64,000 bases of DNA from Acidisoma sp. PAMC 29798 (lineage in GTDB: Bacteria; Pseudomonadota; Alphaproteobacteria; Acetobacterales; Acetobacteraceae), in NCBI RefSeq assembly GCF_030252425.1, contig NZ_CP126994.1:3901001-3965000 (forward strand), written 5' to 3'. A model generated the notes under the pieces. That model was not told where the DNA came from and searched no databases. It worked only from the letters and a program-made list of their open reading frames with translations. Shown piece after piece: positions 1 to 63,460 of this stretch (position 1 is its first letter; every line of letters begins with the position of its first letter). The position numbers and the translations under genes are program-made.

Positions 1-50
1 CCTACTGCTCCTGCGACGGTATGGCTGGGCTAGCGTTCCCGTCTACCACC

Positions 51-46503: not shown

Positions 46504-46659
46504 GTTCTGTCAGAACCTGTGCCAGAGACCGATCTGGTGGCGCGTGCTTGGCTGCCCTAGTGTTTGCAAGGGGCAGCGACGGCTGGGATCGAGATGAACT
46601 GTGTGGGCTGTGGATCGGCAGCGGTGGCGGAGCGGCGCGAGGTCGCCGCACGTGGCTAC

Positions 46660-46793
46660 CGGCGGTAACAACGCTCCGCCATAGGGATCAAGCGACAGCA
46701 CCGTATGCACCTGGGCAGCCAATCCGTCGAAACCCTTGCGCATGTCGGTGAACCCGCATCCCAGATACACGCGCGTGCCGGCGGCAGCATCAT
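46660..46793 (-). pseudogene. IS66 TnpB fragment, frameshifted
   Basis: Starts with an ATG overlapping the tnpA stop. After a one-base loss in the first five codons it reads [37 protein letters not shown], the conserved core of the IS66 second protein, and similarity ends near 46670. Confidence 0.75.
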
Positions 46794-47254
46794 GGCGCCG
46801 CGAGCGCCGCAAGCACGCGCTGCAGTAGCGTGCCGTCCACATCGGACCCGATACGCAGCCGAACACCCGACTGCAGCTCGACCTCGATCACGCCCGCAGC
46901 CTACTCCGCTACCGGCCATGGCGGCGGCATCGGCGTCGCCGGTGTGTCGTGGCAGGTGCTCGGCAACGCCATCGCAGCTTCAGGCTGGGTCTCGACCGTG
47001 GCGAAGCCTGCCATCGCCGTTCGAAGTATCTGCTTGCGCCACGTATAAATCAGCCCCGTGCCAATGCCATGCCGGTCGGCTACGACCTGCGCCACCGAAC
47101 CAGGCACCAAGGTCTCGCGGACGATGGCCAGCTTGGCCGCCGAGGTCCACCGCCGCCGACGCTCCGGCCGGACAAGCATCTCGACGCGGTCCGGAAGAGT
47201 GCTCATACGACCGTCGTATGACTGCTCATAAGAGCTTTCGTTCCCGTCAGTCAT
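46790..47254 (-). pseudogene. IS66 TnpA with a premature stop
   Basis: MTDGNESSYEQSYDGRMSTL, RRRRWTSAAKLAIVRETLVPG, SVAQVVADRHGIGTGLIYTWRKQ give a clear TnpA helix-turn-helix. A TAG at about 46901 interrupts the frame; beyond it, still in frame, [20 protein letters not shown] and [12 protein letters not shown] complete the protein. One nonsense mutation therefore separates it from an intact gene. Confidence 0.8.
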
Positions 47255-47612
47255 GCACTGCCCCACCAACATCAATTGGCAGGATGCTCAATTGGAACCA
47301 GCGCCGAAACGTGGGGCTGCGCTTTCGCTTACGAGCAAACGCGGCAAAGGCCGCGATGTCCGTCTCTGGCCCTGGAGCCGGATGACCGCCTGGCGTCAGG
47401 TTCATGCCGTGATGGAAGGCGCCGGACTCTCTGGGCCGCACGCCTCACCCAAGCGGCTCCGGCACGGCTTCGGGGTGGCGGCAGTCTCCGCCGGCATCTC
47501 CCTTAACCTTGTCCAGAAATTGCTCGGCCACGCCCAGCTCTCCACAACCGCCATCTATGCCGATGCCGTCGGCGCCGAGGAGAAAGACATCGCCCGTCGT
47601 ATGTGGGGGTAG
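47253..47612 (+). pseudogene. tyrosine recombinase (integrase), C-terminal fragment
   Basis: RLWPWSRMTAWRQVHAVMEG, SPKRLRHGFGVAAVSAGISLNLVQKLLGHAQLSTTAIYAD is the catalytic end of a phage-type integrase: the His-x-x-Arg-like RLRHGFG, the LLGHAQ histidine and the Tyr nucleophile in TAIYAD. The N-terminal core-binding domain and the first catalytic Arg are missing; the opening ~25 codons are not family sequence. Confidence 0.75.
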
Positions 47613-51722: not shown

Positions 51723-51977
51723 CTAGGGATTCTCAGGAACGAGTTTGCGTGATTCATAGGAGGTCGGTACGATCCCGGCGGCCGCCTTCGCGGCATTCGT
51801 TGCGGTGGAAACGGCGATCCCCATCTGCGCCTGCCTCAGCGCCGGGGCATCGTTGGCCCCATCGCCGCGCATGCCGACGATATGCGAGTCTGCCTGTAGC
51901 GCCTTGACAAAGCGGAACTTGTCCTCGGTCACAACGCCGGCGAAAAATGCGTAGTCTTCCGCCTTGATTCGGGGCGC
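51723..51977 (-). pseudogene. P-type ATPase fragment
   Basis: [49 protein letters not shown] is the hinge region of a proton-efflux or similar cation P-type ATPase, including the conserved GDGxNDAP loop. The remainder of the pump (phosphorylation DKTGT site, nucleotide domain, membrane helices) is absent on both sides. It is a relic of a gene of 800 or more residues. Confidence 0.75.
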
Positions 51978-52367
51978 GGGCTTAACGCATAGCGGAGGCA
52001 CTCCGAAAGCGAGGGATCGCGATCACGAATACTACCGCTTCCAACGCAGGCACTTTCAGAACGTCCTTGAAGTCGAGCCGACTGCGCACCCTTGGGTGCG
52101 AGGGCAGACCGCCGCGGCGGTTTGCCCGTCACCTCGATCCTGCCGACGGTGACGTCGAGGTGTCGCGATTGATAGCCATGGGCTACCGTCAGTCTGACCA
52201 GGATTCTTCCGCTCCCCATCCCGGGCGAGTGCATTCTTTGTGCCAAGCTCGTTTGGGCTGCGCCAAGATGACGCGCGCAGTACGGGATAGAATGCGGCGC
52301 TTGCAGGCATTGGTCTCCGCCACAGAAGAACGCCGCCGCTTTGTTACCCGCTCGTTCGTATTCCAAT
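51978..52367. other. 390 bp with no recognisable gene
   Basis: No frame could be supported, although some of it may be further decayed P-type ATPase. It precedes the end of the aspartate decarboxylase gene. Confidence 0.4.
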
Positions 52368-54019: not shown

Positions 54020-55729
54020 CTACGGTCCTGCATTCTTCGTGATAATGCCGACGATGACCGGTCCCCACAGCGTCAGGAAGACATTCGCGACGGCATAGGT
54101 GACTGTGAAGGACACAACGGGCGTGCCATTCCCCGCCTTGGCGAGCAAGGCAGCGAAGGCGGGATTTGCGCTCCGCCCACCCGCAACGCACGACAGTGCC
54201 TCGATCGGATTTTTGATACGCAGGACAAAGTAGGAAAAGAAGAACGTCACGATCTGCGGGATGAGTGTCACGGCAACACCCAGGAGCAGCAGCGTCACGC
54301 CATAATGTTCGATGGCCGTCAGGGCCTGGGGGCCGGCACCAATCCCGACCACACCGACGAACACGGCCAGGCCGAAATCTCGCAGGAAGGTCGACGCGCC
54401 GATCGGCAGGGCGGCAAACCTGGGATGCACGCTGCGCAGCCACCCAAATAGCAGGCCCGAGAGAAGGCAACCGCCACCGCTGCCTATGGAAATCGGCACG
54501 CCCCATATCTTGAAGGCCAACATGCCGATCAGCGTGCCGACAATCATGCCGAGACCGAAGAATATGAAATCCGTCACGACCGCGGCACTAATCTTGTAGC
54601 CGATCTTCGATTGGACGCGGTCGAGATCGGACGGGCTGCCCGTGAAATGCAGCTCATCTCCGGTCTTAAGTTGAAGCTTGCTCAACAAGGGCAGGTCTCG
54701 CCCCATGCGCTTCGCCGCGGTCAGAAACACGCCGTGACGCGTGTCGATCGTGGCATGATCGTGGATTTCGCTAATCTGCCGGCCACTTAATACGCGGTTC
54801 GTGAGAATGATCCCTCGGTTCTCCTCAACGATCGAGAACCCGGGCGGGGACGCGATCTCACGACCGAACACCGTGTCCGACAGTTTGAATGCGTCGAGCC
54901 GTCCCGTCATCGCGACGGCGTCTCCAAGCTCGATCGTTGTCGTGTCATTCATCTCGACCATTTTGCCGGCACGAAAAACACCCTCGACTGAGGCATCCGA
55001 GAATTGCCTATCGAGTTCCAAGGTCGTTCTGCCGATGGCCGTGCGGTCCCGTGTGACTTCATAGACGCGCGTGATGATATCGTTGACGGCGTTAAACTGG
55101 CCAGGTTCGAGTTCCGCCTTGCCGCCAGATAGCTCCTTTGCAAGCTTGACGGCTTCCTTGCGGATATCCCACTTCATGATCATGGGGAAGAACCAAGTCA
55201 CCATGATGATCGGACCGAGCGAGCCGAAAATGTAACAGACGGCGTAACCGACCGCGACATTCGTCTGCATAGTTTTGGTTATTGCTGGAGAAAGGCCCAA
55301 TTTGGAGATCGCATCCCCCGCCGTCCCGAGAATGGCCGACTGGGTCAATCCACCTGCGGCAAGGCCGGCTGCCATGCCGCGATCCAATCCAAACATCCAA
55401 GCCCCCGCGATGACACAGAGGAGGCCCGTGAAGCACATGACGAACGCCGAGACGAGTTGATTGAGCGAACGCAGATTCAGAGCGTGGAAGAACTGCGGGC
55501 CGCCCTGAAAACCGACCGCATAGATGAACAAGGCGAAGAAGATCGTCTTGATGCCGGGGTCGATGTTGACGCCCAACTGGCCGATGATAACTCCCACCAG
55601 CAAAGTGCCGGCGACACCGCCAAGAACGAAGCTTCCGACTTTGATCCGGCCTACGAGATAACCTATGGCGATGGTGGCGAAGAGAGCAATCAGCGGTTGA
55701 TTGGCGAAGAGATGCCGTAGGAAATCCAT
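54020..55729 (-). CDS. aspT: aspartate-alanine antiporter
   Basis: A 569-residue inner-membrane exchanger of the AAE family, swapping external aspartate for internal alanine. Two hydrophobic halves (about residues 10-180 and 385-565) flank a central cytoplasmic pair of TrkA_C-like domains (AIGRTTLELDRQF to TGDELHFTGSPSDLDRV). The family motif GGLTQSAILGTAGDAI, and in the second half GAGPQAL, are visible. With aspD it makes a metabolic proton-motive cycle useful for acid resistance or energy. A FixJ-like box lies 117 bp before the start, on this strand. Confidence 0.95.
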   Translation of the reverse strand: MDFLRHLFANQPLIALFATIAIGYLVGRIKVGSFVLGGVAGTLLVGVIIGQLGVNIDPGIKTIFFALFIYAVGFQGGPQFFHALNLRSLNQLVSAFVMCFTGLLCVIAGAWMFGLDRGMAAGLAAGGLTQSAILGTAGDAISKLGLSPAITKTMQTNVAVGYAVCYIFGSLGPIIMVTWFFPMIMKWDIRKEAVKLAKELSGGKAELEPGQFNAVNDIITRVYEVTRDRTAIGRTTLELDRQFSDASVEGVFRAGKMVEMNDTTTIELGDAVAMTGRLDAFKLSDTVFGREIASPPGFSIVEENRGIILTNRVLSGRQISEIHDHATIDTRHGVFLTAAKRMGRDLPLLSKLQLKTGDELHFTGSPSDLDRVQSKIGYKISAAVVTDFIFFGLGMIVGTLIGMLAFKIWGVPISIGSGGGCLLSGLLFGWLRSVHPRFAALPIGASTFLRDFGLAVFVGVVGIGAGPQALTAIEHYGVTLLLLGVAVTLIPQIVTFFFSYFVLRIKNPIEALSCVAGGRSANPAFAALLAKAGNGTPVVSFTVTYAVANVFLTLWGPVIVGIITKNAGP

Positions 55730-55845: not shown

Positions 55846-55861
55846 TCGGAAACTACCTAGG
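55846..55861 (-). promoter_or_regulatory. FixJ-like box 1 (toward aspT)
   Basis: On the minus strand this reads CCTAGGTAGTTTCCGA. It is one of five near-identical boxes in the last 8.5 kb, and it points toward aspT, 117 bp away. Rhizobial FixJ targets have the form TAnGTAGTTTCC. Confidence 0.6.
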
Positions 55862-55986
55862 TCGCCGCTTTTTAATCGCAGTCTGAGAGGGTCTGTGGCG
55901 AGCCGGCATGGATACTCAACACATGATGGCGAGGATGGTCGCAGGCGTAGCACATGATCTTACTAACTCACGCCAACGGACTCATG

Positions 55987-56000
55987 TAGGTAATTTCCGA
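55987..56000 (+). promoter_or_regulatory. FixJ-like box 2 (toward histidine phosphatase)
   Basis: TAGGTAATTTCCGA, one mismatch (A for G in GTAG) from the others. It points toward the histidine phosphatase gene, 214 bp away. It is the weakest box of the set. Confidence 0.45.
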
Positions 56001-56213
56001 ATCTACACCCTGATGCCAGGATGAAATACTCTCAATCAATCTTAGGCTTGCCGACAAAACGACTGTCACGCAGGCCACAACACTAGTCGAAAGTCACGCT
56101 TTGCCTAAGAACTCTCCAAACTTCTGCAATCTCATAGCCTCGACCGAGACTGGGGCACCGCCAGGGCGTCCTGCAATGGTGGCTGCGAGCATCGCCCGCC
56201 GTTCGGTGCCGCG

Positions 56214-56840
56214 ATGAAATCGTCAACGCGTATTATCCTGGTCCGCCACGGCGAAGTCAAAGGCATAGAGACCCCACGTTTTCGAGGTTCAGCAGACCTG
56301 CCTCTCACCGAACGTGGATTGCGACAATCGGAACTGACCCGTGATCACCTCCTGTATCTGGGCGTAGCCGCTGCAATCTACAGCAGCCCGCTCCGGGGAT
56401 GTGCGCAAACAGCCGCGATCTTCGGGCAGTCGCAGGCAGTCGCCGTGAATTATGCGTCTGAACTGAATGATATCGACCATGGCCTTTGGCGGGGGCAAAC
56501 CCATGATGACATCAGGCGAAGCGAGCCGCTCGGCTTCGACACATGGGTGGCCAATCCCGAGAAGACCCAGTTCCCGGGCGGTGAAAGTCTTCAATCCGCA
56601 GCCGACCGCGCTCTGGTCACGCTCAGCGTCACCCGGACGGCAAGCGTCGGTTCGACCATTCTCCTCGTAAGTTATGACAGCATAATCCGGCTGCTGTTAC
56701 TGCACGTTCTTGGACTGCCGCTGGCCCGCTACGCGACCCTGGACGTTGCACCTTGTGGTATCAGCGTCCTTCTCTCTCAAAAAGCGTCATGGCGTGTGCG
56801 CTGCATCAACGAAACATCGCACCTCATGCGCCTGGGGTGA
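56214..56840 (+). CDS. histidine phosphatase family protein
   Basis: A 208-residue member of the phosphoglycerate-mutase-like (histidine phosphatase) superfamily. IILVRHGEV (Arg-His-Gly, phosphate-accepting His), SSPLRGCAQTA, and LNDIDHGLWRGQTHDDI (catalytic Glu/Asp position) are typical, but the second histidine usually found in a GG/SHG motif appears as VSYDSIIRL, with no His. Its phosphatase activity may therefore be altered. It might act on sugar phosphates or cobalamin intermediates; the pathway cannot be assigned. It is convergent with the kinase gene at 56901. Confidence 0.85.
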   Translation: MKSSTRIILVRHGEVKGIETPRFRGSADLPLTERGLRQSELTRDHLLYLGVAAAIYSSPLRGCAQTAAIFGQSQAVAVNYASELNDIDHGLWRGQTHDDIRRSEPLGFDTWVANPEKTQFPGGESLQSAADRALVTLSVTRTASVGSTILLVSYDSIIRLLLLHVLGLPLARYATLDVAPCGISVLLSQKASWRVRCINETSHLMRLG

Positions 56841-56900
56841 GAAACACGCCGCCGCCGCGAAGCAAAGCGCCTCTTGCTCTCGGATCGATGACGGCGTGAC

Positions 56901-59900
56901 TCAGCTTCCGTCGGCGCCGGAACCCGCCACCGACGCCGCCGCGAGCGCCAGACGCGCCAAAGCAGGAAGCGATTTGGTACCGGTCCGCTCCATGATAGAC
57001 GCCCGATGATTTTCCACGGTGCGCTGGCTGATACCGAGGTCGCTAGCGATGTTCTTGCTGGGATGGCCGGCAAGGACCAATCGCATAATCTCGCGCTGCC
57101 TTGTGGTGAGTCCAGCGAGTTTCGAAGCCGCATCCTCGTGCCAGGCAGACCGCTTGCTCGTATCTCCCGCTTGTTCGAGCGCACGGGCCACGCTCGCAAT
57201 AAGCTCGTCATGTCCGATCGGCTTTTCAATGAAGTCGGAAGCCCCGGCCTTCATCGCCTGCACCGCCATCGGTACGTCACTATTGCCGGTGATCATGATC
57301 GCCGGCAATAGGTCGCCGTCGCTGCGTAGGCGCTGTAGAAGCGCAAGACCGCTCATGCCAGGAAGATAAGCATCGATCACGATGCAGGCTTCGCGGCCTG
57401 GGCGATAGGCGGCGAGAAAGGCCTCGCACGTGCTAAAGACCTCCGTCACGATGCCATGTTCAACCAACACGTCTCGCATCGCATTGCGCACGGAGGCATC
57501 ATCGTCGACGACGAAGACAACCGGTCCGTCGGGATCGCGCCTTGTGTCTATCGGTTCAGAGTGCGGCCGCATCGCCGTTGCCGCCGGTGAAGTCAGTAGG
57601 ACCTGAATGACTCGCGTTAATTCTGAGGCTTTTACGGGTTTGTTCAGTTGTATACAACCACTCTGGGTGACGCGCATCGCCGTTTCGGTGGAGATGTCAC
57701 CCGTCAGCATGATGGCGGGCACGGCTCGTATTAAGGCGTTTCGGATCTGCTCGACGACGTCTAGCCCATTCATCCCGTTGGGAAGGTTGTAGTCAGTAAT
57801 GATGAGGTCCGGTTGCAGTTCCCGTCTAGCCAATACATCTAAGGCCGCAATGCCGTCAGCTGCGGTGGTTGGCTCATAGCCTTGGTCCTGCAATAATAGC
57901 GCGAGCAAATCACGAACTTCCGGATCATCCTCCACGACCAAGATTGCCCTACCCAGGTGCGCCCGCGCCGACTTTGAAGCGCTAACATCATTTTCTGAGT
58001 TGTTAGCGATCGAAGTCAACCCGATCGGTGCAAGCTCAACGTCAATCGTGAATACCGAACCCTTGCCCAGCGCGGAGCGCGCGTGAATTGGACATTTGAG
58101 AAGAGCGCCTAGCCTTTGCACGATCGAAAGGCCAAGGCCAAGGCCGCGGCTGCGTTCCCGTGCCGCATTATCGACCTGGAAATACTCCTGAAACACCGAT
58201 TTCAACGCAGTTTCGGAGATGCCAATGCCGCTATCCCAAACCTCTATGCTCAGGCGTCCGGAACGCCGCCGGCAGCCGACCAGGACTTTGCCGTGCTTGG
58301 TGTATTTTAGGGCGTTGGAGATAAAGTTGCGGATGATCTGTTCCAGCAGGTTGGCGTCACCCCTAACAGACAGCCCGCACGGCACAACGCTCAAGGTCAG
58401 GCCCTTGGCCAGCGCATGATATGAAAATTCTTCTCGTAAACGTGTCAGAACCTTGTCGATCTGAAAGCTCTGTAGTTCGGCATGGACGCCACCGGCGTCA
58501 ATCTGGTTGATGTCCAGCAAGGTGTTCAGCATGCCCGCCATCGCGCCTAGCGTATCATCCAACCGGGATACCAATCGCTGCGCGCGCTCTCCTTCGACCG
58601 TGTGTGATAGCAGACCCTGAAGCAGCGTGAGGGTCTGCAATGGCTGTCGAAGGTCATGGCTGGCGGCTGCCAGGAACCGGGACTTCGTAACGTTGGCGAT
58701 ATCGGCCTGCTGCTTGGCCGCTTCTAAGGCCCGGCCGGCTAGAATCCGCTTTGTGATGTCAGTGAAGGTGATGACAACGCCCTCCACGCGGCCATCATGC
58801 GACCTATACGGAGAGATGCGCCGGCGGAACCAAGCGCCATTCCCACCCTCGATCTCGCGCTCGACGAGTGTCATGCTTTTTAGCACGTCTTCCGCATCGA
58901 CCGTCACCGATGCCTCGGGGCCGAGTGATCGGAGATCCGCGAGCGGACGGCCGACATCACTTGGTATGACATGGAAGATCGATCGCGTTTCTGGCGTAAA
59001 GAAGCGAATATTCAGGTGCACATCAAGGAAGATGGTCGCCACGTCAGTGCTGTAGAGGACGTTCTGAAGATCGTCGGCGGTTGTGCGCTGGCGATCCAAG
59101 GTTTCACGCAACTGGCTATTAAGCGCCGTCAGTTCCTCGTTCAGGGACTGAAGCTCCTCCTTCGAGGCAAGAAGCTCTTCATTCGTCGATTGGAACTCTT
59201 CGTTTGCCGACAGCGCTTCCTCGTCGATCGCCTTGTGGTCCTCGCTCATGATCTCGAGATCACGCAAGGCGTTCCGCAGTTCGAGCCCTACCGCGTCGAG
59301 GTCATGCTTGTAACCTGCGTCAGGGCCGTCGAGCCGCGCAGCGAGACGCGCACCAGCGTCATGTTCGACCACCGGGCCCTCGATGAAGCAAACCAGGAGC
59401 AGGTCCTCCCCGGCGTTCGTCACGGGCTGCACGTCGATGCGATACGAGCCCGAGCCTGCCGCGGCTTTGGAGCGACCTCCGGCCATGATGACACGCACCT
59501 TCTCGCGCCTTGCTTGATTGATGGCCAGCTTCAGCTTGGACCGTACCTCCGGTCGGGCCATCGCGAGCAGGTCATGGGTCGGCTGCTCTGGAATCGCCCT
59601 CAGATAGCGGTCAGTCGGGCCCACAGAGAACAGACATTGGTGTTTCGTATTGATCAAAATGGCCGCAGGTGCGTATTGCTCGAGAACGAGGCGCTGCCCC
59701 AGTTCGACGATAGACTCCTGTCTCGATAGCGGCGATTCCTTGCCGGCTCTTCGGCGGAATCGGAGCGCGCCACCGGCGACATGCGCCGAGGTGGAACTAC
59801 TCTCTCTCCCAGCACCCAGGAACTTGTAGAGTCGGTCAGATTTCGAGATAATCTCAAACTTGGCTTCTGAGCTGCCGATGGTCTCCGACGTTCCAAGAAG

Positions 59901-61337
59901 CAAGATGCCACTCTTGCGGAGAGCAAACCGGAAGACCGCGATGACGCGCTCCTGGGCCTCGGGGCTCAGGTAGATCAAAAGGTTTCGACACGACACAAGA
60001 TCGAGTCGCGAAAACGGTGGATCAGCGAGCACGTCCTGCACCGTGTAAACGACAGACGCGCGGAGGTCGGCCGAAACGCGATAACCATCCTCCTCCTTGG
60101 AGAAGAAACGCGCCAGGCGATCGGCCGATACATCCGCCTCGATAGTGAGCGGATAAAAGCCTTCGCGCGCCGTCGCTACGGCCTCTGGATCGACATCCGA
60201 GGCAAAGACCTGCAAACCCAGGTCCGATCTCGCAGCGAGAAGCTGCTCTCGGAACAGCATTGCGAGTGAGTACGGCTCCTGACCCGTGCTGCATCCGGCG
60301 ACCCAGATGCGAATCGTCTGGCCGGCCGGCTGATGGCGAATGATCTCCGGAATGACACTTTCCGAAAGCGTGTCGAAGACAGTCGGATCTCGAAAGAAGC
60401 TGGTGACGTTGATGAGGAGATCCATCGCAAGAAGATTGAGCTCCGCCTCGTCATCATAGAGCTTGTGGTAGTACCGGCCCATTTCCCCGCGCGGGATGGC
60501 GAGCATGGCCATCCGCCGTTCGATGCGCCGGCGCAGCGTCCCTGGCTTGTAGAGCGTGAAATTATAGACCGTCTGAGTGCGGAGCAGCAGGACGATCTCG
60601 TCAAAGCAATCCGTTTCAGGAACATCCTTCAAAGGCGGCTGAAAACCCTTGGCCGATGCTCTCGCCTGCCGGGCTTGCAACGCGGCGGGCATTTCAGCGA
60701 CTGGAAGGATGAGATCGACGACATCCGTATCGATTGCGCTTTGCGGCATTCCTCTGTAGCCCGCCTCGGCGGGTCGCTGGGCAATGGTAAGGCCCCCTTT
60801 TTCCCGCAACGCGCCGGAGCCCAGGCTTCCATCCGCACCTGTGCCGGATAGGATAATGGACACGGCACGCGGCCCGAACGCCTCCGCGAGTGACTGCAAA
60901 AGGTGGTCGAACGGCAGGCGCGCCCCGTGACGGCTCGGCGGGCGGGAAAGATGAAAGGCGCCCTCAACGATAGAGAGGTAGGTTCCCGGGGGAATGACGT
61001 AGAGATGGTCCGCCTCAAGCGCCATCCCTTCCGCAGCCTGTACGACCGTCATTTTGGTATGGGCTGAAAGAAGCTCCACCATCATGCTCTCATGATTTGG
61101 ATCGAGATGCTGGATGAGAATGAAGGTCATCCCCGTGTCAGCGGTGATCGCATCCAATAGCTTCGTGCAGGCCCCCAATCCGCCCGCTGAAGCCCCAATG
61201 CCGATAACAAGATCGGCCGATTGTCCTACAGCAACCTTCGCCTCATCCAATATTGCGCGGCCGTTAAATGCGGTTTCGGACACCTCGCCGTTGGCGGAGT
61301 GATCCTTGGGCGGAAGACGCGGCATGCGTAGCGTCAT
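56901..61337 (-). CDS. CheB-CheR-PAS histidine kinase fused to REC-REC-LuxR
   Basis: A 1,478-residue signalling protein. Domains in order: CheB methylesterase (40-225; IGIGASAGG, ILIQHLDPNH, SGTGADGS), CheR methyltransferase (240-505; INVTSFFRDP, WVAGCSTGQEPYS), a Glu-rich coiled coil (700-755), PAS (760-865), histidine kinase (885-1105; ASHDLRQPLQ with His894, NALKY, DSGIGI, GLGLGLSI), receiver 1 (1130-1250; Asp1182), receiver 2 (1272-1390; Asp1322 in IDAYLPGMSG), and a LuxR-type helix-turn-helix (1410-1465; LTTRQREIMRLVLAGHPSKNIA). Receiver 2 plus LuxR is a complete FixJ-type response regulator, so sensing and transcription sit on one chain. Autoregulation and control of the nearby FixJ-like boxes are inferred. 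Confidence 0.94.
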   Translation of the reverse strand: MTLRMPRLPPKDHSANGEVSETAFNGRAILDEAKVAVGQSADLVIGIGASAGGLGACTKLLDAITADTGMTFILIQHLDPNHESMMVELLSAHTKMTVVQAAEGMALEADHLYVIPPGTYLSIVEGAFHLSRPPSRHGARLPFDHLLQSLAEAFGPRAVSIILSGTGADGSLGSGALREKGGLTIAQRPAEAGYRGMPQSAIDTDVVDLILPVAEMPAALQARQARASAKGFQPPLKDVPETDCFDEIVLLLRTQTVYNFTLYKPGTLRRRIERRMAMLAIPRGEMGRYYHKLYDDEAELNLLAMDLLINVTSFFRDPTVFDTLSESVIPEIIRHQPAGQTIRIWVAGCSTGQEPYSLAMLFREQLLAARSDLGLQVFASDVDPEAVATAREGFYPLTIEADVSADRLARFFSKEEDGYRVSADLRASVVYTVQDVLADPPFSRLDLVSCRNLLIYLSPEAQERVIAVFRFALRKSGILLLGTSETIGSSEAKFEIISKSDRLYKFLGAGRESSSTSAHVAGGALRFRRRAGKESPLSRQESIVELGQRLVLEQYAPAAILINTKHQCLFSVGPTDRYLRAIPEQPTHDLLAMARPEVRSKLKLAINQARREKVRVIMAGGRSKAAAGSGSYRIDVQPVTNAGEDLLLVCFIEGPVVEHDAGARLAARLDGPDAGYKHDLDAVGLELRNALRDLEIMSEDHKAIDEEALSANEEFQSTNEELLASKEELQSLNEELTALNSQLRETLDRQRTTADDLQNVLYSTDVATIFLDVHLNIRFFTPETRSIFHVIPSDVGRPLADLRSLGPEASVTVDAEDVLKSMTLVEREIEGGNGAWFRRRISPYRSHDGRVEGVVITFTDITKRILAGRALEAAKQQADIANVTKSRFLAAASHDLRQPLQTLTLLQGLLSHTVEGERAQRLVSRLDDTLGAMAGMLNTLLDINQIDAGGVHAELQSFQIDKVLTRLREEFSYHALAKGLTLSVVPCGLSVRGDANLLEQIIRNFISNALKYTKHGKVLVGCRRRSGRLSIEVWDSGIGISETALKSVFQEYFQVDNAARERSRGLGLGLSIVQRLGALLKCPIHARSALGKGSVFTIDVELAPIGLTSIANNSENDVSASKSARAHLGRAILVVEDDPEVRDLLALLLQDQGYEPTTAADGIAALDVLARRELQPDLIITDYNLPNGMNGLDVVEQIRNALIRAVPAIMLTGDISTETAMRVTQSGCIQLNKPVKASELTRVIQVLLTSPAATAMRPHSEPIDTRRDPDGPVVFVVDDDASVRNAMRDVLVEHGIVTEVFSTCEAFLAAYRPGREACIVIDAYLPGMSGLALLQRLRSDGDLLPAIMITGNSDVPMAVQAMKAGASDFIEKPIGHDELIASVARALEQAGDTSKRSAWHEDAASKLAGLTTRQREIMRLVLAGHPSKNIASDLGISQRTVENHRASIMERTGTKSLPALARLALAAASVAGSGADGS

Positions 61338-61437
61338 GTTTCATCCTATTCCGCGCGACATGCGAGAGCGTGACGTTCCGTTGTCGTTTGGGCTCGCACT
61401 GAGTGGCGACGTGGACCCGCAAATGTTGCAGGGCGTT

Positions 61438-61451
61438 TAGGTAGTTTCCGA
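61438..61451 (+). promoter_or_regulatory. FixJ-like box 3 (between kinase and receiver genes)
   Basis: TAGGTAGTTTCCGA lies in the 276-bp divergent gap, 100 bp from the kinase ATG and 163 bp from the single-receiver ATG. It is oriented toward the latter. It could serve both promoters. Confidence 0.6.
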
Positions 61452-61613
61452 AGCTATCTTAGTTCAGTTTTGCTGAGTTACAAAATCTCATGACGGATAA
61501 CCGGGCTACACCGACCATAGACGCGGCAAAATGACACGGTTTCACTCCCCGCAGTCAGCGATCGCACGCATCCGTCGCGCGTCGTTCTTCCCAAGGCCGG
61601 GCGTCGATCGCGC

Positions 61614-61964
61614 ATGATATCCTTGCGTATTCTCGTCGTTGAGGATGATCTTATCATCGGATCACTGATCTCGGAGATGCTTGTAGAGCTCGGACATGAA
61701 GTTTGCGGTCTAGAAACAACAGAAATGGCCGCCATCGCGGCTGCGTCTCGCGATAAGCCGCAACTCATGATCGTCGATCGCCAGTTGCGCGAAGGAGACG
61801 GAACCTCCACCATGAGGGCTGTTCTCCGCGCTGGCCCGGTTGCTTATATTTTCATGACTGGCGAGCGCAGGGTCGCCGACAACCCCGACGCGGTCATGCT
61901 CTACAAGCCGTTTCGAGAGGTGGACCTGCGCGTTGCTATCGAGCGCGCTGTGTCAAGGCGTTGA
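61614..61964 (+). CDS. single-domain response regulator
   Basis: A 116-residue lone CheY-like receiver: ILVVEDDLIIGSLI (acidic pair), MIVDRQLREGDGT (phospho-Asp about residue 55), FMTGE (Thr) and LYKPFREVDL (Lys). No output domain is present, so it relays phosphate or acts by binding a partner. It is divergent from the CheB-CheR-kinase gene, the natural source of phosphate. It is convergent with the PRC-barrel gene, 9 bp away. Confidence 0.88.
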   Translation: MISLRILVVEDDLIIGSLISEMLVELGHEVCGLETTEMAAIAAASRDKPQLMIVDRQLREGDGTSTMRAVLRAGPVAYIFMTGERRVADNPDAVMLYKPFREVDLRVAIERAVSRR

Positions 61965-61973
61965 TTGATCGCT

Positions 61974-62753
61974 TTAGTACAGGCTCTGGCCGGGCCAGTT
62001 GTAATGGTGATGCAGCCCCTCAGCATAGGCCTGCTCAATCATGGCGTCAGGATTCCATGGCGGCGCGGTCTTGACCTTCTCGCGCAGGACATTGAGCCTG
62101 ATCTCGCGGTCTTCCCAACTGACTCCGCTCACGGCGTAGGGTGACAGCAGCACGTGCTTGCCAGGCCACCAGTTTTTGGTGTCGATGATCATGTATTGAA
62201 CGGCCCAGGCCTTATCGTCGATCAGAAGATTCTCGATGTGACCGATGGTACCGTCGGTCGCGTGGACATGGTAGCCGATGACCGCTGACACACTGCGGAG
62301 GTGTGGATCCAGATGTTCGTCTTCTTCGCTTGAAGACGCCGTGTTGGCCGTAAAAAATGGCGGTGACGATAGCGGAGAACCGATCGCGCCGGCGCCTATT
62401 CCGTCGCCCGTCGCAAGTAAGCCGCCGCCACCCCAGATCGGGTTCCAGCCGTAGTAATCATAGAGGCTGAGTTCCATCTGCCGTGATACAGGGGCGTCAG
62501 CGCTGATATCAGGACTTTCTTCGACTTGAGTCATTGTCAGCGCGACCGCGAGTTCCTCCCGATCGTAATCTGACTTGACGATCGCGGATGGGTGAACAAG
62601 CACTTTACGCGCCGACAGCCAGCTCCCTGTGTCGATCACGAGCCAGCGTAGCTTCCAGCTCCGGTCATCGAATAGGAAATCAGCAACGACACCGATTTTT
62701 CCGTCTTGGGCCTTGATGGCGTAACCTTTGAACGCCGCGGCGACCAACAGCAT
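61974..62753 (-). CDS. PRC-barrel domain protein (two domains)
   Basis: A 259-residue protein with two PRC-barrel domains: about residues 3-75 (FKGYAIKAQDGKIGVVADFLFDDRSWKLRWLVIDTG) and 155-230 (VIGYHVHATDGTIGHIENLLIDDKAWAVQYMIIDTKNWWPGKHVLLSP). Such domains occur in photosynthetic reaction-centre H subunits and in stress- or RNA-associated proteins. The ATG at 62753 starts MLLVAAAFKGYAI; upstream in-frame codons overlap the next gene and are not family-like. It is probably a general stress-linked protein of this regulon. Confidence 0.85.
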   Translation of the reverse strand: MLLVAAAFKGYAIKAQDGKIGVVADFLFDDRSWKLRWLVIDTGSWLSARKVLVHPSAIVKSDYDREELAVALTMTQVEESPDISADAPVSRQMELSLYDYYGWNPIWGGGGLLATGDGIGAGAIGSPLSSPPFFTANTASSSEEDEHLDPHLRSVSAVIGYHVHATDGTIGHIENLLIDDKAWAVQYMIIDTKNWWPGKHVLLSPYAVSGVSWEDREIRLNVLREKVKTAPPWNPDAMIEQAYAEGLHHHYNWPGQSLY

Positions 62754-62806
62754 GGTGCAATGATCCTGATATTCGTGGTTGCGGGCAATTCGCGACCTCG
62801 GTCGCG

Positions 62807-63295
62807 TTACCGTGAAAGCTGAGGACTTGGCGGCGTCGCCTGTTTCGGGCTTTGGTGCGTCATCGCCGTTATCGACCCCGCCTGTTGTTGCGTGAACAGC
62901 AGGCTCATCGACGTACCCAGGGCTAGCGCGCAAAAGATCAGAATGAGCGGCCCATAGCTTTGACGAGTGGTGATATCAACGGCAACGATGCCGGGGCTTT
63001 GCAGAGCCCCTGCTGGACCGGGCAGGAGAAGGACAAGCCTCGCAGCCCTCGCGCGGGCATCCGCAGAGGATACGGATGACAGGGGGGTGCGGCCGATCAG
63101 TCGCGCGAGATTTTCTGGAAGAGCCGTTTTGGGCATCCTCGCCAGTCGGCCGGCTTCTTCCCAAGGGTCCTTGTCCATGCGCGCGAGAACCGAGAGCATC
63201 GTCACAGTTGAGCCGTTAAAATCCGTTCCCGCCTCAGCATAGAGAAAGGCATTCAGGGCCGAATGACCAAGATTCTCCGCATTGCGATCTGCCAC
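62807..63295 (-). CDS. single-pass membrane protein, function unknown
   Basis: A 162-residue protein with a ~90-residue cytoplasmic N-terminal part (SALNAFLYAEAGTDFNGSTVTMLSVLARMDKDPWEEAGRLARMPK) and one membrane helix near residues 112-132 (YGPLILIFCALALGTSMSLLF). I do not know a named family. FixJ-like box 4 lies 96 bp upstream on its strand. It precedes and is probably co-transcribed with the PRC-barrel gene, 53 bp away. Confidence 0.7.
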   Translation of the reverse strand: MADRNAENLGHSALNAFLYAEAGTDFNGSTVTMLSVLARMDKDPWEEAGRLARMPKTALPENLARLIGRTPLSSVSSADARARAARLVLLLPGPAGALQSPGIVAVDITTRQSYGPLILIFCALALGTSMSLLFTQQQAGSITAMTHQSPKQATPPSPQLSR

Positions 63296-63390
63296 GGCCG
63301 GCTCTCCCTTGCTGCGTGAAGCCTCATGTCTGCGTGCCCATACGAGGACAAAGAAACATTGTTGCCACGTCGCTTCCCGCTCGGGCAGCC

Positions 63391-63405
63391 TCGGAAACTA
63401 CTTAA
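63391..63405 (-). promoter_or_regulatory. FixJ-like box 4 (toward membrane protein gene)
   Basis: On the minus strand this reads TTAAGTAGTTTCCGA, the closest of the five to rhizobial FixJ sites (TAAGTAGTTTCC). It lies 96 bp before the gene at 63295. Confidence 0.65.
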
Positions 63406-63445
63406 GTGGTCCGGTTTGCCGAGTTCGCGTGCCACCCCGAGCGGC

Positions 63446-63460
63446 CTGAGTAGTTTCCGA
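63446..63460 (+). promoter_or_regulatory. FixJ-like box 5 (toward alcohol dehydrogenase)
   Basis: CTGAGTAGTTTCCGA lies 57 bp before the alcohol dehydrogenase start and is inverted relative to box 4, 41 bp away. The pair sits back to back between divergent genes. Confidence 0.6.

What the first reader, a model, noticed from the sequence alone, without database searches (positions are those of the whole stretch)
55846..63460. Five FixJ-type boxes mark a local regulon around a one-chain sensor-regulator
Five short sequences (TA[A/G]GTAGTTTCCGA, one weaker copy TAGGTAATTTCCGA) occur only in the last 8.5 kb, at 55846, 55987, 61438, 63391 and 63446. All five lie between genes, and four of the five sit 57-163 bp before a start codon in matching orientation. 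They bracket aspT-aspD, a histidine phosphatase, a receiver, a membrane-PRC operon and an alcohol dehydrogenase. The only LuxR/FixJ-type output in the window is the C-terminus of the CheB-CheR-PAS-kinase protein in the middle. Rhizobial FixJ sites have the same TAnGTAGTTTCC core. A sensor kinase and FixJ-like regulator on one chain directly controlling its own neighbours is the most complete unreported-looking system here.
Basis: partly seen in the sequence, partly recalled or inferred. Interest (0 to 1): 0.72.

Follow-up and report, generated by a model that had tools for sequence, protein, structure and literature searches.

The report
One-protein sensor-regulator with its DNA boxes
A single very long bacterial protein that is both sensor and gene switch appears to turn on a large set of stress and fermentation genes through a specific 21-letter DNA box, and this pairing of protein and box recurs in many alphaproteobacteria.

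Summary
The boxes are real: 5 in the window against 0.41 expected, 32 in the genome against 0 for the reversed pattern. The box is TRRGTAGTTTCCGANNCTRCC and avoids genes (2 of 31 sites inside, 81% of the DNA coding). A -10-like hexamer recurs 39-41 bp after the box start (124 of 295 sites; control mean 16.4), the geometry of an activator overlapping -35. In 120 Acetobacteraceae genomes, >=3 boxes occur in 22 of 26 with the chain and 3 of 94 without; with ordinary FixJ only, 2 of 31; chain without FixJ, 10 of 13. Of 80 chain loci from a named collection, 72 carry boxes (202 sites, reversed control 0). Conclusion: the chain, not the genome's separate FixJ, reads the boxes and activates a stress, fermentation and envelope regulon. 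Direct binding and the signal are unproven. New variant of hybrid two-component regulators; not found in ten paper searches.

The parts
55846..55859 (-). Box 1 (TAGGTAGTTTCCGA; followed by GGCTACC), 116 bp before the aspT start
55987..56000 (+). Box 2 (TAGGTAATTTCCGA), 213 bp before the histidine phosphatase ATG
61438..61451 (+). Box 3 (TAGGTAGTTTCCGA), in the divergent gap between chain and receiver, pointing to the receiver; -10-like TACAAA at +41
63391..63404 (-). Box 4 (TAAGTAGTTTCCGA), 95 bp before the 162-aa/PRC genes; -10-like AACAAT at +41
63447..63460 (+). Box 5 (TGAGTAGTTTCCGA), 56 bp before the alcohol dehydrogenase
56901..61337 (-). One-chain regulator, 1478 aa: CheB, CheR, coiled coil (by eye), PAS_10, HisKA, HATPase, REC, REC, LuxR
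   Evidence: 57% identical paralogue in the second cluster
57189..57518 (-). REC2 of the chain (residues 1274-1383)
56946..57110 (-). LuxR/GerE DNA-binding domain of the chain (residues 1410-1464)
   Evidence: the C-terminal 219 aa match FixJ best among solved structures, 5xso E 6.5e-41
61614..61964 (+). Single-domain receiver, target of box 3; receivers of this kind are the commonest neighbour family of the chain (32 of 80 loci)
54020..55729 (-). AspT-like Asp/Ala exchanger, target of box 1
   Evidence: PF06826
52368..53987 (-). AspD-like aminotransferase-fold enzyme, probably co-transcribed with aspT
   Evidence: PF00155
56214..56840 (+). Histidine phosphatase family protein, possible target of box 2
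   Evidence: PF00300
62807..63295 (-). 162-aa protein without Pfam match, target of box 4
   Evidence: homologue in the second cluster
61974..62753 (-). PRC-barrel protein, next gene behind box 4
   Evidence: PF05239
63517..64000 (+). Alcohol dehydrogenase (runs on beyond the window to 64500 of the joined region), target of box 5
   Evidence: PF08240

Best explanation
The 1478-aa chain is a hybrid two-component regulator with its own DNA-binding end. A signal acting on the CheB-CheR/coil/PAS front end sets the activity of the histidine kinase. Phosphate passes to the receivers on the same chain, and the phosphorylated REC2-LuxR part binds, as a FixJ-like dimer, the imperfect palindrome RGTAG-TTTCCGANN-CTRCC. 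Bound there, centred about 41-42 bp before the start of transcription, it acts as a class II activator of promoters with weak -10 elements. The targets form a regulon of many operons: single-domain receiver, AspT-AspD, phosphoketolase, a phosphotransacetylase-type protein, alcohol dehydrogenase, an amino acid permease-decarboxylase-OTC-carbamate kinase operon, mechanosensitive channel, BON/PRC/SPFH envelope proteins. The set suggests survival when respiration, energy or the envelope is under stress. Shown by computation: motif, clustering, gene avoidance, promoter geometry, co-occurrence with the chain and not with FixJ. Inferred: binding by the chain, phosphorylation order, activation, physiological signal.
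For: Motif beyond chance in window, genome and relatives. Box count >=3: 18 of 22 family genomes with the chain's output domain, 22 of 26 when 4 genomes with incomplete chains are added, 3 of 94 others (Fisher 5e-17); stand-alone FixJ only 2 of 31; chain without FixJ 10 of 13. The reversed pattern gives 25 hits in 21 of the 120 genomes, never more than 2 in one. Without the own genus 20 of 24. Class-wide, exact box in 8 of 289 genomes, chain in 13 of 289, both in 6 (Fisher 6e-8; 1e-6 without the own genome). Of 80 chain loci from the genome collection (the best 80 of at least 483 relatives), 72 carry boxes, 202 sites, reversed control 0. Only two of the 13 GerE hits of the genome lie in the box clusters, and both are this chain. 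FixJ-like output and a FixJ-like box core (PMC4999443). -10-like hexamer at +39..41 in 124 of 295 sites, control mean 16.4, maximum 27. Natural control: G076's chain ends after REC1, without REC2-LuxR, and that genome has 0 boxes.
Against: No binding or expression data. Four family genomes have the chain's output domain but few or no boxes (G005 0, G012 0, G007 1, G096 2), and 7 of 13 chain genomes in the class sample have no exact box, where the reversed pattern itself hits 3 of 289 genomes once each. G004, G019 and G082 have >=3 boxes without a detected chain; the first two have a congener with the chain or a piece of it, and the third is 73% complete. Chain and boxes may travel together on islands, so co-occurrence alone cannot exclude another regulator on the island. 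In G006 (3 boxes) the kinase's phosphate-accepting His is replaced (L037), and in G010 (7 boxes) the chain is 644 aa with no detected ATPase domain, PAS or second receiver (L121); there the chain cannot phosphorylate itself in the ordinary way. In the own genome only 5 of 31 sites have a -10-like hexamer of >=4/6 at the favoured spacing.
Confidence: 0.81

Rival explanations
1. The boxes are read by the genome's ordinary two-protein FixL-FixJ system at C1:1513.8-1516.4 kb; the chain is a neighbour or a bystander.
For: A FixJ with 41.8% identity to REC2-LuxR exists in the genome behind a PAS-PAS-HisKA kinase, and FixJ's known sites share the GTAGTTTCC core (PMC4999443).
Against: Of 31 family genomes with stand-alone FixJ but no chain, 2 have >=3 boxes; of 13 with the chain but no such FixJ, 10 do (with looser FixJ hits counted, 2 of 38 and 8 of 10). 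No site within 2 mismatches of two FixJ cores (TAMGTAGTTTCC, TAAGTAATTTCC) in about 32 kb around the FixLJ pair.
Confidence: 0.07
2. Another regulator of the same islands reads the boxes, and the chain is linked only by co-inheritance.
For: The clusters hold transposase genes. Cluster A has a Crp-type and two MerR-type regulators, cluster B an OmpR-kinase pair. Both hold a ParE-type toxin with an 84- or 78-aa partner that could bind DNA.
Against: Apart from that toxin pair, the paralogues shared by the two clusters include no DNA-binding protein other than the chain among those typed by Pfam. In the 80 loci, of the 21 most frequent neighbour families 19 were scanned through one member each: one, in 4 loci, has a DNA-binding domain and 4 have no Pfam match. 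The output domain and the box are both FixJ-like. In G014 and G031 the boxes lie on many contigs.
Confidence: 0.09
3. The boxes are part of a mobile repeat or another non-regulatory sequence.
For: Clusters contain transposases and duplicated genes.
Against: Outside the 21 bp and the -10 region, no column from -40 to +127 of 295 sites exceeds 0.12 bits. Position and orientation relative to genes are constrained.
Confidence: 0.02

Closest known systems
FixJ / FixL-FixJ of rhizobia
   Same: REC-LuxR output (best solved-structure match 5xso); box core GTAGTTTCC; imperfect palindrome
   Different: Sensor and regulator are one chain with CheB-CheR and two receivers; box ends TTTCCGA-NN-CT instead of TTTCCC(TTA); about 30 sites, where FixJ is reported upstream of a few genes (PMC4999443 passages); the genome carries an ordinary FixLJ pair as well
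Hybrid two-component systems with DNA-binding ends (HTCS, AraC type, of Bacteroides; recalled)
   Same: Sensor, kinase, receiver and DNA-binding domain on one polypeptide; regulates neighbouring genes
   Different: LuxR/FixJ output, CheB-CheR-coil-PAS front end, two receivers, many stress operons as targets
Low-oxygen-activated (lxa) locus of Burkholderia cenocepacia (content recalled; only a paper listing seen)
   Same: Large co-regulated cluster of stress and energy genes thought to help survival without oxygen
   Different: Different organism group; regulator and box not shown to be the same; not compared gene by gene here
CheB-CheR-PAS proteins without a matching LuxR end
   Same: Same front end (own genome C1:1466517-1469117, 37% over residues 5-869, with one stop inside)
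   Different: The match ends before the kinase domain; the rest of that protein was not examined

Membership tests
FixJ response regulator | Receiver plus C-terminal LuxR/GerE domain related to FixJ | tested here: met
   (5xso FixJ E 6.5e-41 over 195 residues)
FixJ response regulator | Stand-alone response regulator with a separate FixL kinase | tested here: not met
   kinase and regulator are one open frame of 1478 aa
FixJ response regulator | Site with GTAGTTTCC core upstream of targets | tested here: met
   the 3' part differs (CGA-NN-CT)
FixJ response regulator | Haem PAS oxygen sensor | not tested
   PAS_10 found; haem ligands not examined
FixJ response regulator | Activates a fixK-type Crp gene | tested here: inconclusive
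   one Crp-family gene in cluster A has a one-mismatch box 175 bp upstream in matching orientation
Hybrid two-component regulator with DNA-binding end | Input, HisKA/HATPase, receiver and HTH on one chain | tested here: met
   for both own copies; in 17 of 20 fetched family loci selected segments of kinase, both receivers and LuxR align (L028 is cut by a contig end, L029 ends after REC1, L038 is divergent); 59 of 73 chain genes called complete in the 80 loci have >=1400 aa
Hybrid two-component regulator with DNA-binding end | Binds DNA upstream of its targets | not testable with these tools
   needs gel shift or ChIP
Burkholderia lxa locus | Same gene content and regulation by low oxygen | not tested
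   resemblance recalled only

The most novel reading that the evidence does not exclude
The chain is a transcription factor with built-in chemotaxis-type adaptation. Its own CheR and CheB would methylate and demethylate glutamates of the Glu-rich coiled coil between CheR and PAS, resetting the kinase as the signal persists. The box-controlled single-domain receiver would drain phosphate as a second feedback. Sensing, adaptation memory, kinase and DNA binding would thus sit in one molecule controlling a stress regulon.
Probability: 0.2. Interest if true: 0.85.

Novelty: new variant of a known kind. Interest (0 to 1): 0.64.

Why it matters
It links a multi-domain protein for which I found no described function to an exact DNA code and to its target genes across many alphaproteobacteria. 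That makes the regulon testable at once: one gel shift, one deletion. It also suggests that a FixJ-type output was captured by a CheB-CheR kinase and keeps a box distinguishable from FixJ's, so the question of what CheB and CheR do when fused to a kinase and a transcription factor gets a direct transcriptional read-out.

Tried and rejected
A mobile repeat: flanks carry no conservation. Activation of the chain itself through the adjacent box in the usual orientation: 0 of 36 upstream sites point to the chain. Clean covariation of recognition helix and box: looked at, not clean (N to T or S changes occur in chains with and without boxes), so not claimed. Dyad: some inner pairs are strong (289, 277 and 293 of 295), the pair 6/16 has 208, two inner pairs fail (61 and 24) and the outer pairs are weak (157, 102, 73, 71 and 36 of 295), so the palindrome is imperfect. 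Columns 16-17 were part of the search pattern for those 295, but 31 of 31 own sites found without that condition carry CT there. Paper searches (10 of 10 used) listed no report of this box or of this chain with it. Several lists were cut: 15 of 6,202 shown, 15 of 27, 10 of 99, 15 of 25; the box core on either strand gave only papers unrelated by title among those shown. Most subscription journals are not in that library. I saw passages of PMC4999443 only; the rest as listings. The sets were typed by hand: chain = one search hit with >=50% identity, plus four genomes (G053, G057, G074, G103) with an incomplete chain of >=50% identity; FixJ = stand-alone one search hit with E <= 1e-44. One search's clustering P used 28 of 31; the recount is 29 of 31.

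Full report
Observation. The genome search with TARGTARTTTCCGA at <=1 mismatch gave 31 sites against 3 for the reversed pattern. 29 of the 31 lie in two stretches of contig C1, 2.286-2.390 Mb (cluster A, 17 sites) and 3.957-4.003 Mb (cluster B, 12 sites; its first 8.5 kb is the end of the window). With the extended pattern TRRGTARTTTCCGANNCT at <=1 mismatch the genome has 32 sites and the reversed pattern 0; one site, at 1713853, lies outside the clusters. All 31 cluster sites found with a pattern that did not ask for it carry CT at positions 17-18. Over 295 sites from 101 sources the box is T-R-R-G-T-A-G-T-T-T-C-C-G-A-N-N-C-T-R-C-C, and outside it only a region 40-46 bp downstream is conserved.

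Promoter geometry. At offsets 39-41 from the box start, 124 of 295 sites have a hexamer matching TATAAT in at least 4 of 6 positions; control offsets of equal width average 16.4 with a maximum of 27, and 70 of 101 sources have at least one such site. If that hexamer is the -10 element, the box centre lies about 41-42 bp before the start, where class II activators sit (established knowledge of bacterial promoters). In the own genome only 5 of 31 sites meet the criterion; boxes 3 and 4 of the window are among them. Sites avoid genes: 2 of 31 in the own clusters and 4 of 198 distinct sites in the 80 loci lie inside called genes although 81-82% of the DNA is coding (binomial P 4e-19 and 2e-136, treating sites as independent).

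The regulator. The 1478-aa chain has CheB, CheR, PAS_10, HisKA, HATPase, two receivers and GerE. A paralogue of 1481 aa, 57% identical, lies in cluster A. The genome has 13 GerE hits, and these two are the only ones in the clusters. The REC2-LuxR part matches FixJ best among solved structures. A separate FixL-FixJ-like pair exists at C1:1513.8-1516.4 kb: a kinase with PAS domains and a FixJ. No site within 2 mismatches of the two FixJ cores tried lies in about 32 kb around it.

Which regulator reads the boxes. In 120 family genomes (102 genera), >=3 boxes occur in 18 of 22 with the chain's output domain (identity >=50%), and in 22 of 26 when four genomes with an incomplete, mostly contig-cut chain are added, against 3 of 94 without. 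Stand-alone FixJ (E <= 1e-44) without chain: 2 of 31. Chain without such FixJ: 10 of 13. Both: 12 of 13. Neither: 1 of 63 (counted). Counting weaker FixJ hits too: 2 of 38, 8 of 10, 14 of 16 and 1 of 56. The reversed pattern never exceeds 2 in a genome (25 hits in 21 of 120). The three exceptions without a chain are drafts: G019 and G004 have congeners (G110, G103) with the chain or a piece of it, and G082 is 73% complete; a search of these three found no chain. Among chain genomes poor in boxes, G005's chain has altered helix and receiver residues. G076's chain stops after REC1 and its genome has 0 boxes. In a class-wide sample the exact box occurs in 8 of 289 genomes and the chain in 13 of 289, 6 shared; the reversed pattern hits 3 of 289. 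7 of the 13 chain genomes have no exact box, so the box must vary or be absent there.

Relatives with record titles. A scan of the genome collection gave 80 loci with chain-type output domains, the best of at least 483 relatives; by title mainly Acetobacteraceae, other Rhodospirillales, Rhizobiales and Parvibaculum, with single cases labelled Sphingomonas, Caballeronia and others. The own family is probably Acetobacteraceae: a matching contig length identifies G086 as Lichenicoccus roseus. 72 of 80 loci have at least one box within the fetched DNA, 202 sites in 1.117 Mb, reversed control 0. In 71 loci with upstream DNA, 36 have a site within 400 bp upstream of the chain, and all 36 sites point away from it; 28 sites at or just after the chain's stop, in 77 loci, all point downstream. 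The commonest neighbour is a single-domain receiver (32 of 80 loci). A receiver-containing family is also the most frequent box target (24 of 145 by loose clustering; 17 of 145 by best match to the two own receivers). 59 of 73 chain genes called complete have >=1400 aa; 11 have under 1000 aa. Shorter chains checked (L058, L081, L097, L113, L141) have PAS-kinase-REC-REC-LuxR without CheB-CheR, so the boxes go with the output end, not with CheB-CheR. L121 (644 aa, the chain of G010) lacks a detected PAS, ATPase domain and one receiver, and L037 (G006) lacks the kinase His; both genomes have boxes, so phosphate may come from elsewhere there.

What it controls. Genes directly behind boxes in the own genome (positions) include AspT (with AspD), histidine phosphatase, receiver, the 162-aa/PRC pair and ADH; phosphoketolase, a MaoC-PTA protein, an OYE-type oxidoreductase, an MFS protein and an SPFH protein, an MCRA-family protein and a BON protein, PRC proteins; MscS-cNMP channel, and GrpE followed by aldehyde dehydrogenase and transhydrogenase genes; a GH94-type glucan enzyme, and an amino acid permease followed by Orn/Lys/Arg decarboxylase, OTC and a carbamate kinase-like gene. 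A box at C1:3995183 points at a cation ATPase-PPK2 pair but a transposase gene lies between. In relatives: OmpA, YflT, PRC, LTXXQ, Ysc84, P-type ATPase, trehalose phosphatase and Usp proteins behind boxes, with Dps-like ferritin, CsbD and SPFH proteins frequent in the neighbourhood. This reads as energy-saving fermentation, proton-motive and acid protection, and envelope stress. The signal is not known; oxygen or energy limitation is my inference.

Mechanism and limits. Supported by computation: a conserved, oriented, promoter-placed box that follows the chain and not FixJ. Inferred: that REC2-LuxR binds it, that phosphorylation switches it, that it activates. Co-inheritance on islands remains the main alternative. 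It is weakened because the shared paralogues of both clusters show no other DNA-binding protein among those typed, save a ParE-type toxin's small partner that might be one, because only one of 19 scanned frequent neighbour families has a DNA-binding domain, and because in G014 and G031 the boxes are spread over many contigs.

Novelty. Hybrid kinases with DNA-binding ends, and FixJ, are known kinds; the combination with CheB-CheR, this box and this regulon did not appear in ten full-text searches, several with cut lists. I rate it a new variant of a known kind.

Noticed in passing
L009-L015 (C1:2270001-2410000), positions 46593-47345, 76758-77732, 88083-88835, 88886-89542: Cluster A carries two identical IS240-type transposase genes and a 99.5% identical partial copy of the alcohol dehydrogenase, suggesting recent rearrangement of the box-bearing island.
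   Followed up: no
L017:9000-10079 and 10183 (joined position 93000-94183): A DDE-type transposase gene sits between a box and the cation ATPase-PPK2 genes it points to; the paralogous ATPase in cluster A has its box without such an insert.
   Followed up: no
window 51723-52001 (-): A 92-aa open frame looks like the hinge end of a P-type ATPase without the rest, probably a remnant beside aspD (by eye).
   Followed up: no
L084:8652, L095:8646, L097:5678, L126:8589: In several relatives the first three bases of a box form the stop codon of the chain gene, so box and gene end overlap.
   Followed up: partly
L029 (G076): A chain relative ends right after REC1, without REC2-LuxR, and its genome has no boxes: a natural truncation.
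   Followed up: yes
L019 (G005): A full-length chain with altered helix and receiver residues in a genome with 0 boxes; possibly a decayed output or a changed box.
   Followed up: partly
L037 (G006) and L121 (G010): Chains without the kinase His, or without a detected ATPase domain, in genomes that still have boxes; phosphate may come from another kinase.
   Followed up: no
L009:14661-15311: A Crp-family regulator at the edge of cluster A has a one-mismatch box 175 bp upstream in matching orientation, recalling the FixJ-to-fixK cascade.
   Followed up: no
L014:18107-18680 and joined positions 107025-107580 of cluster B: A ParE-type toxin and a small partner, 90-94% identical between the two clusters, near the end of each box region.
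   Followed up: no
window 56901-61337, coil before the PAS domain: The segment between CheR and PAS is a Glu-rich repeat also seen in L029; the short chain L058 still matches from residue 710 on. A candidate substrate for the fused CheR and CheB (by eye).
   Followed up: no
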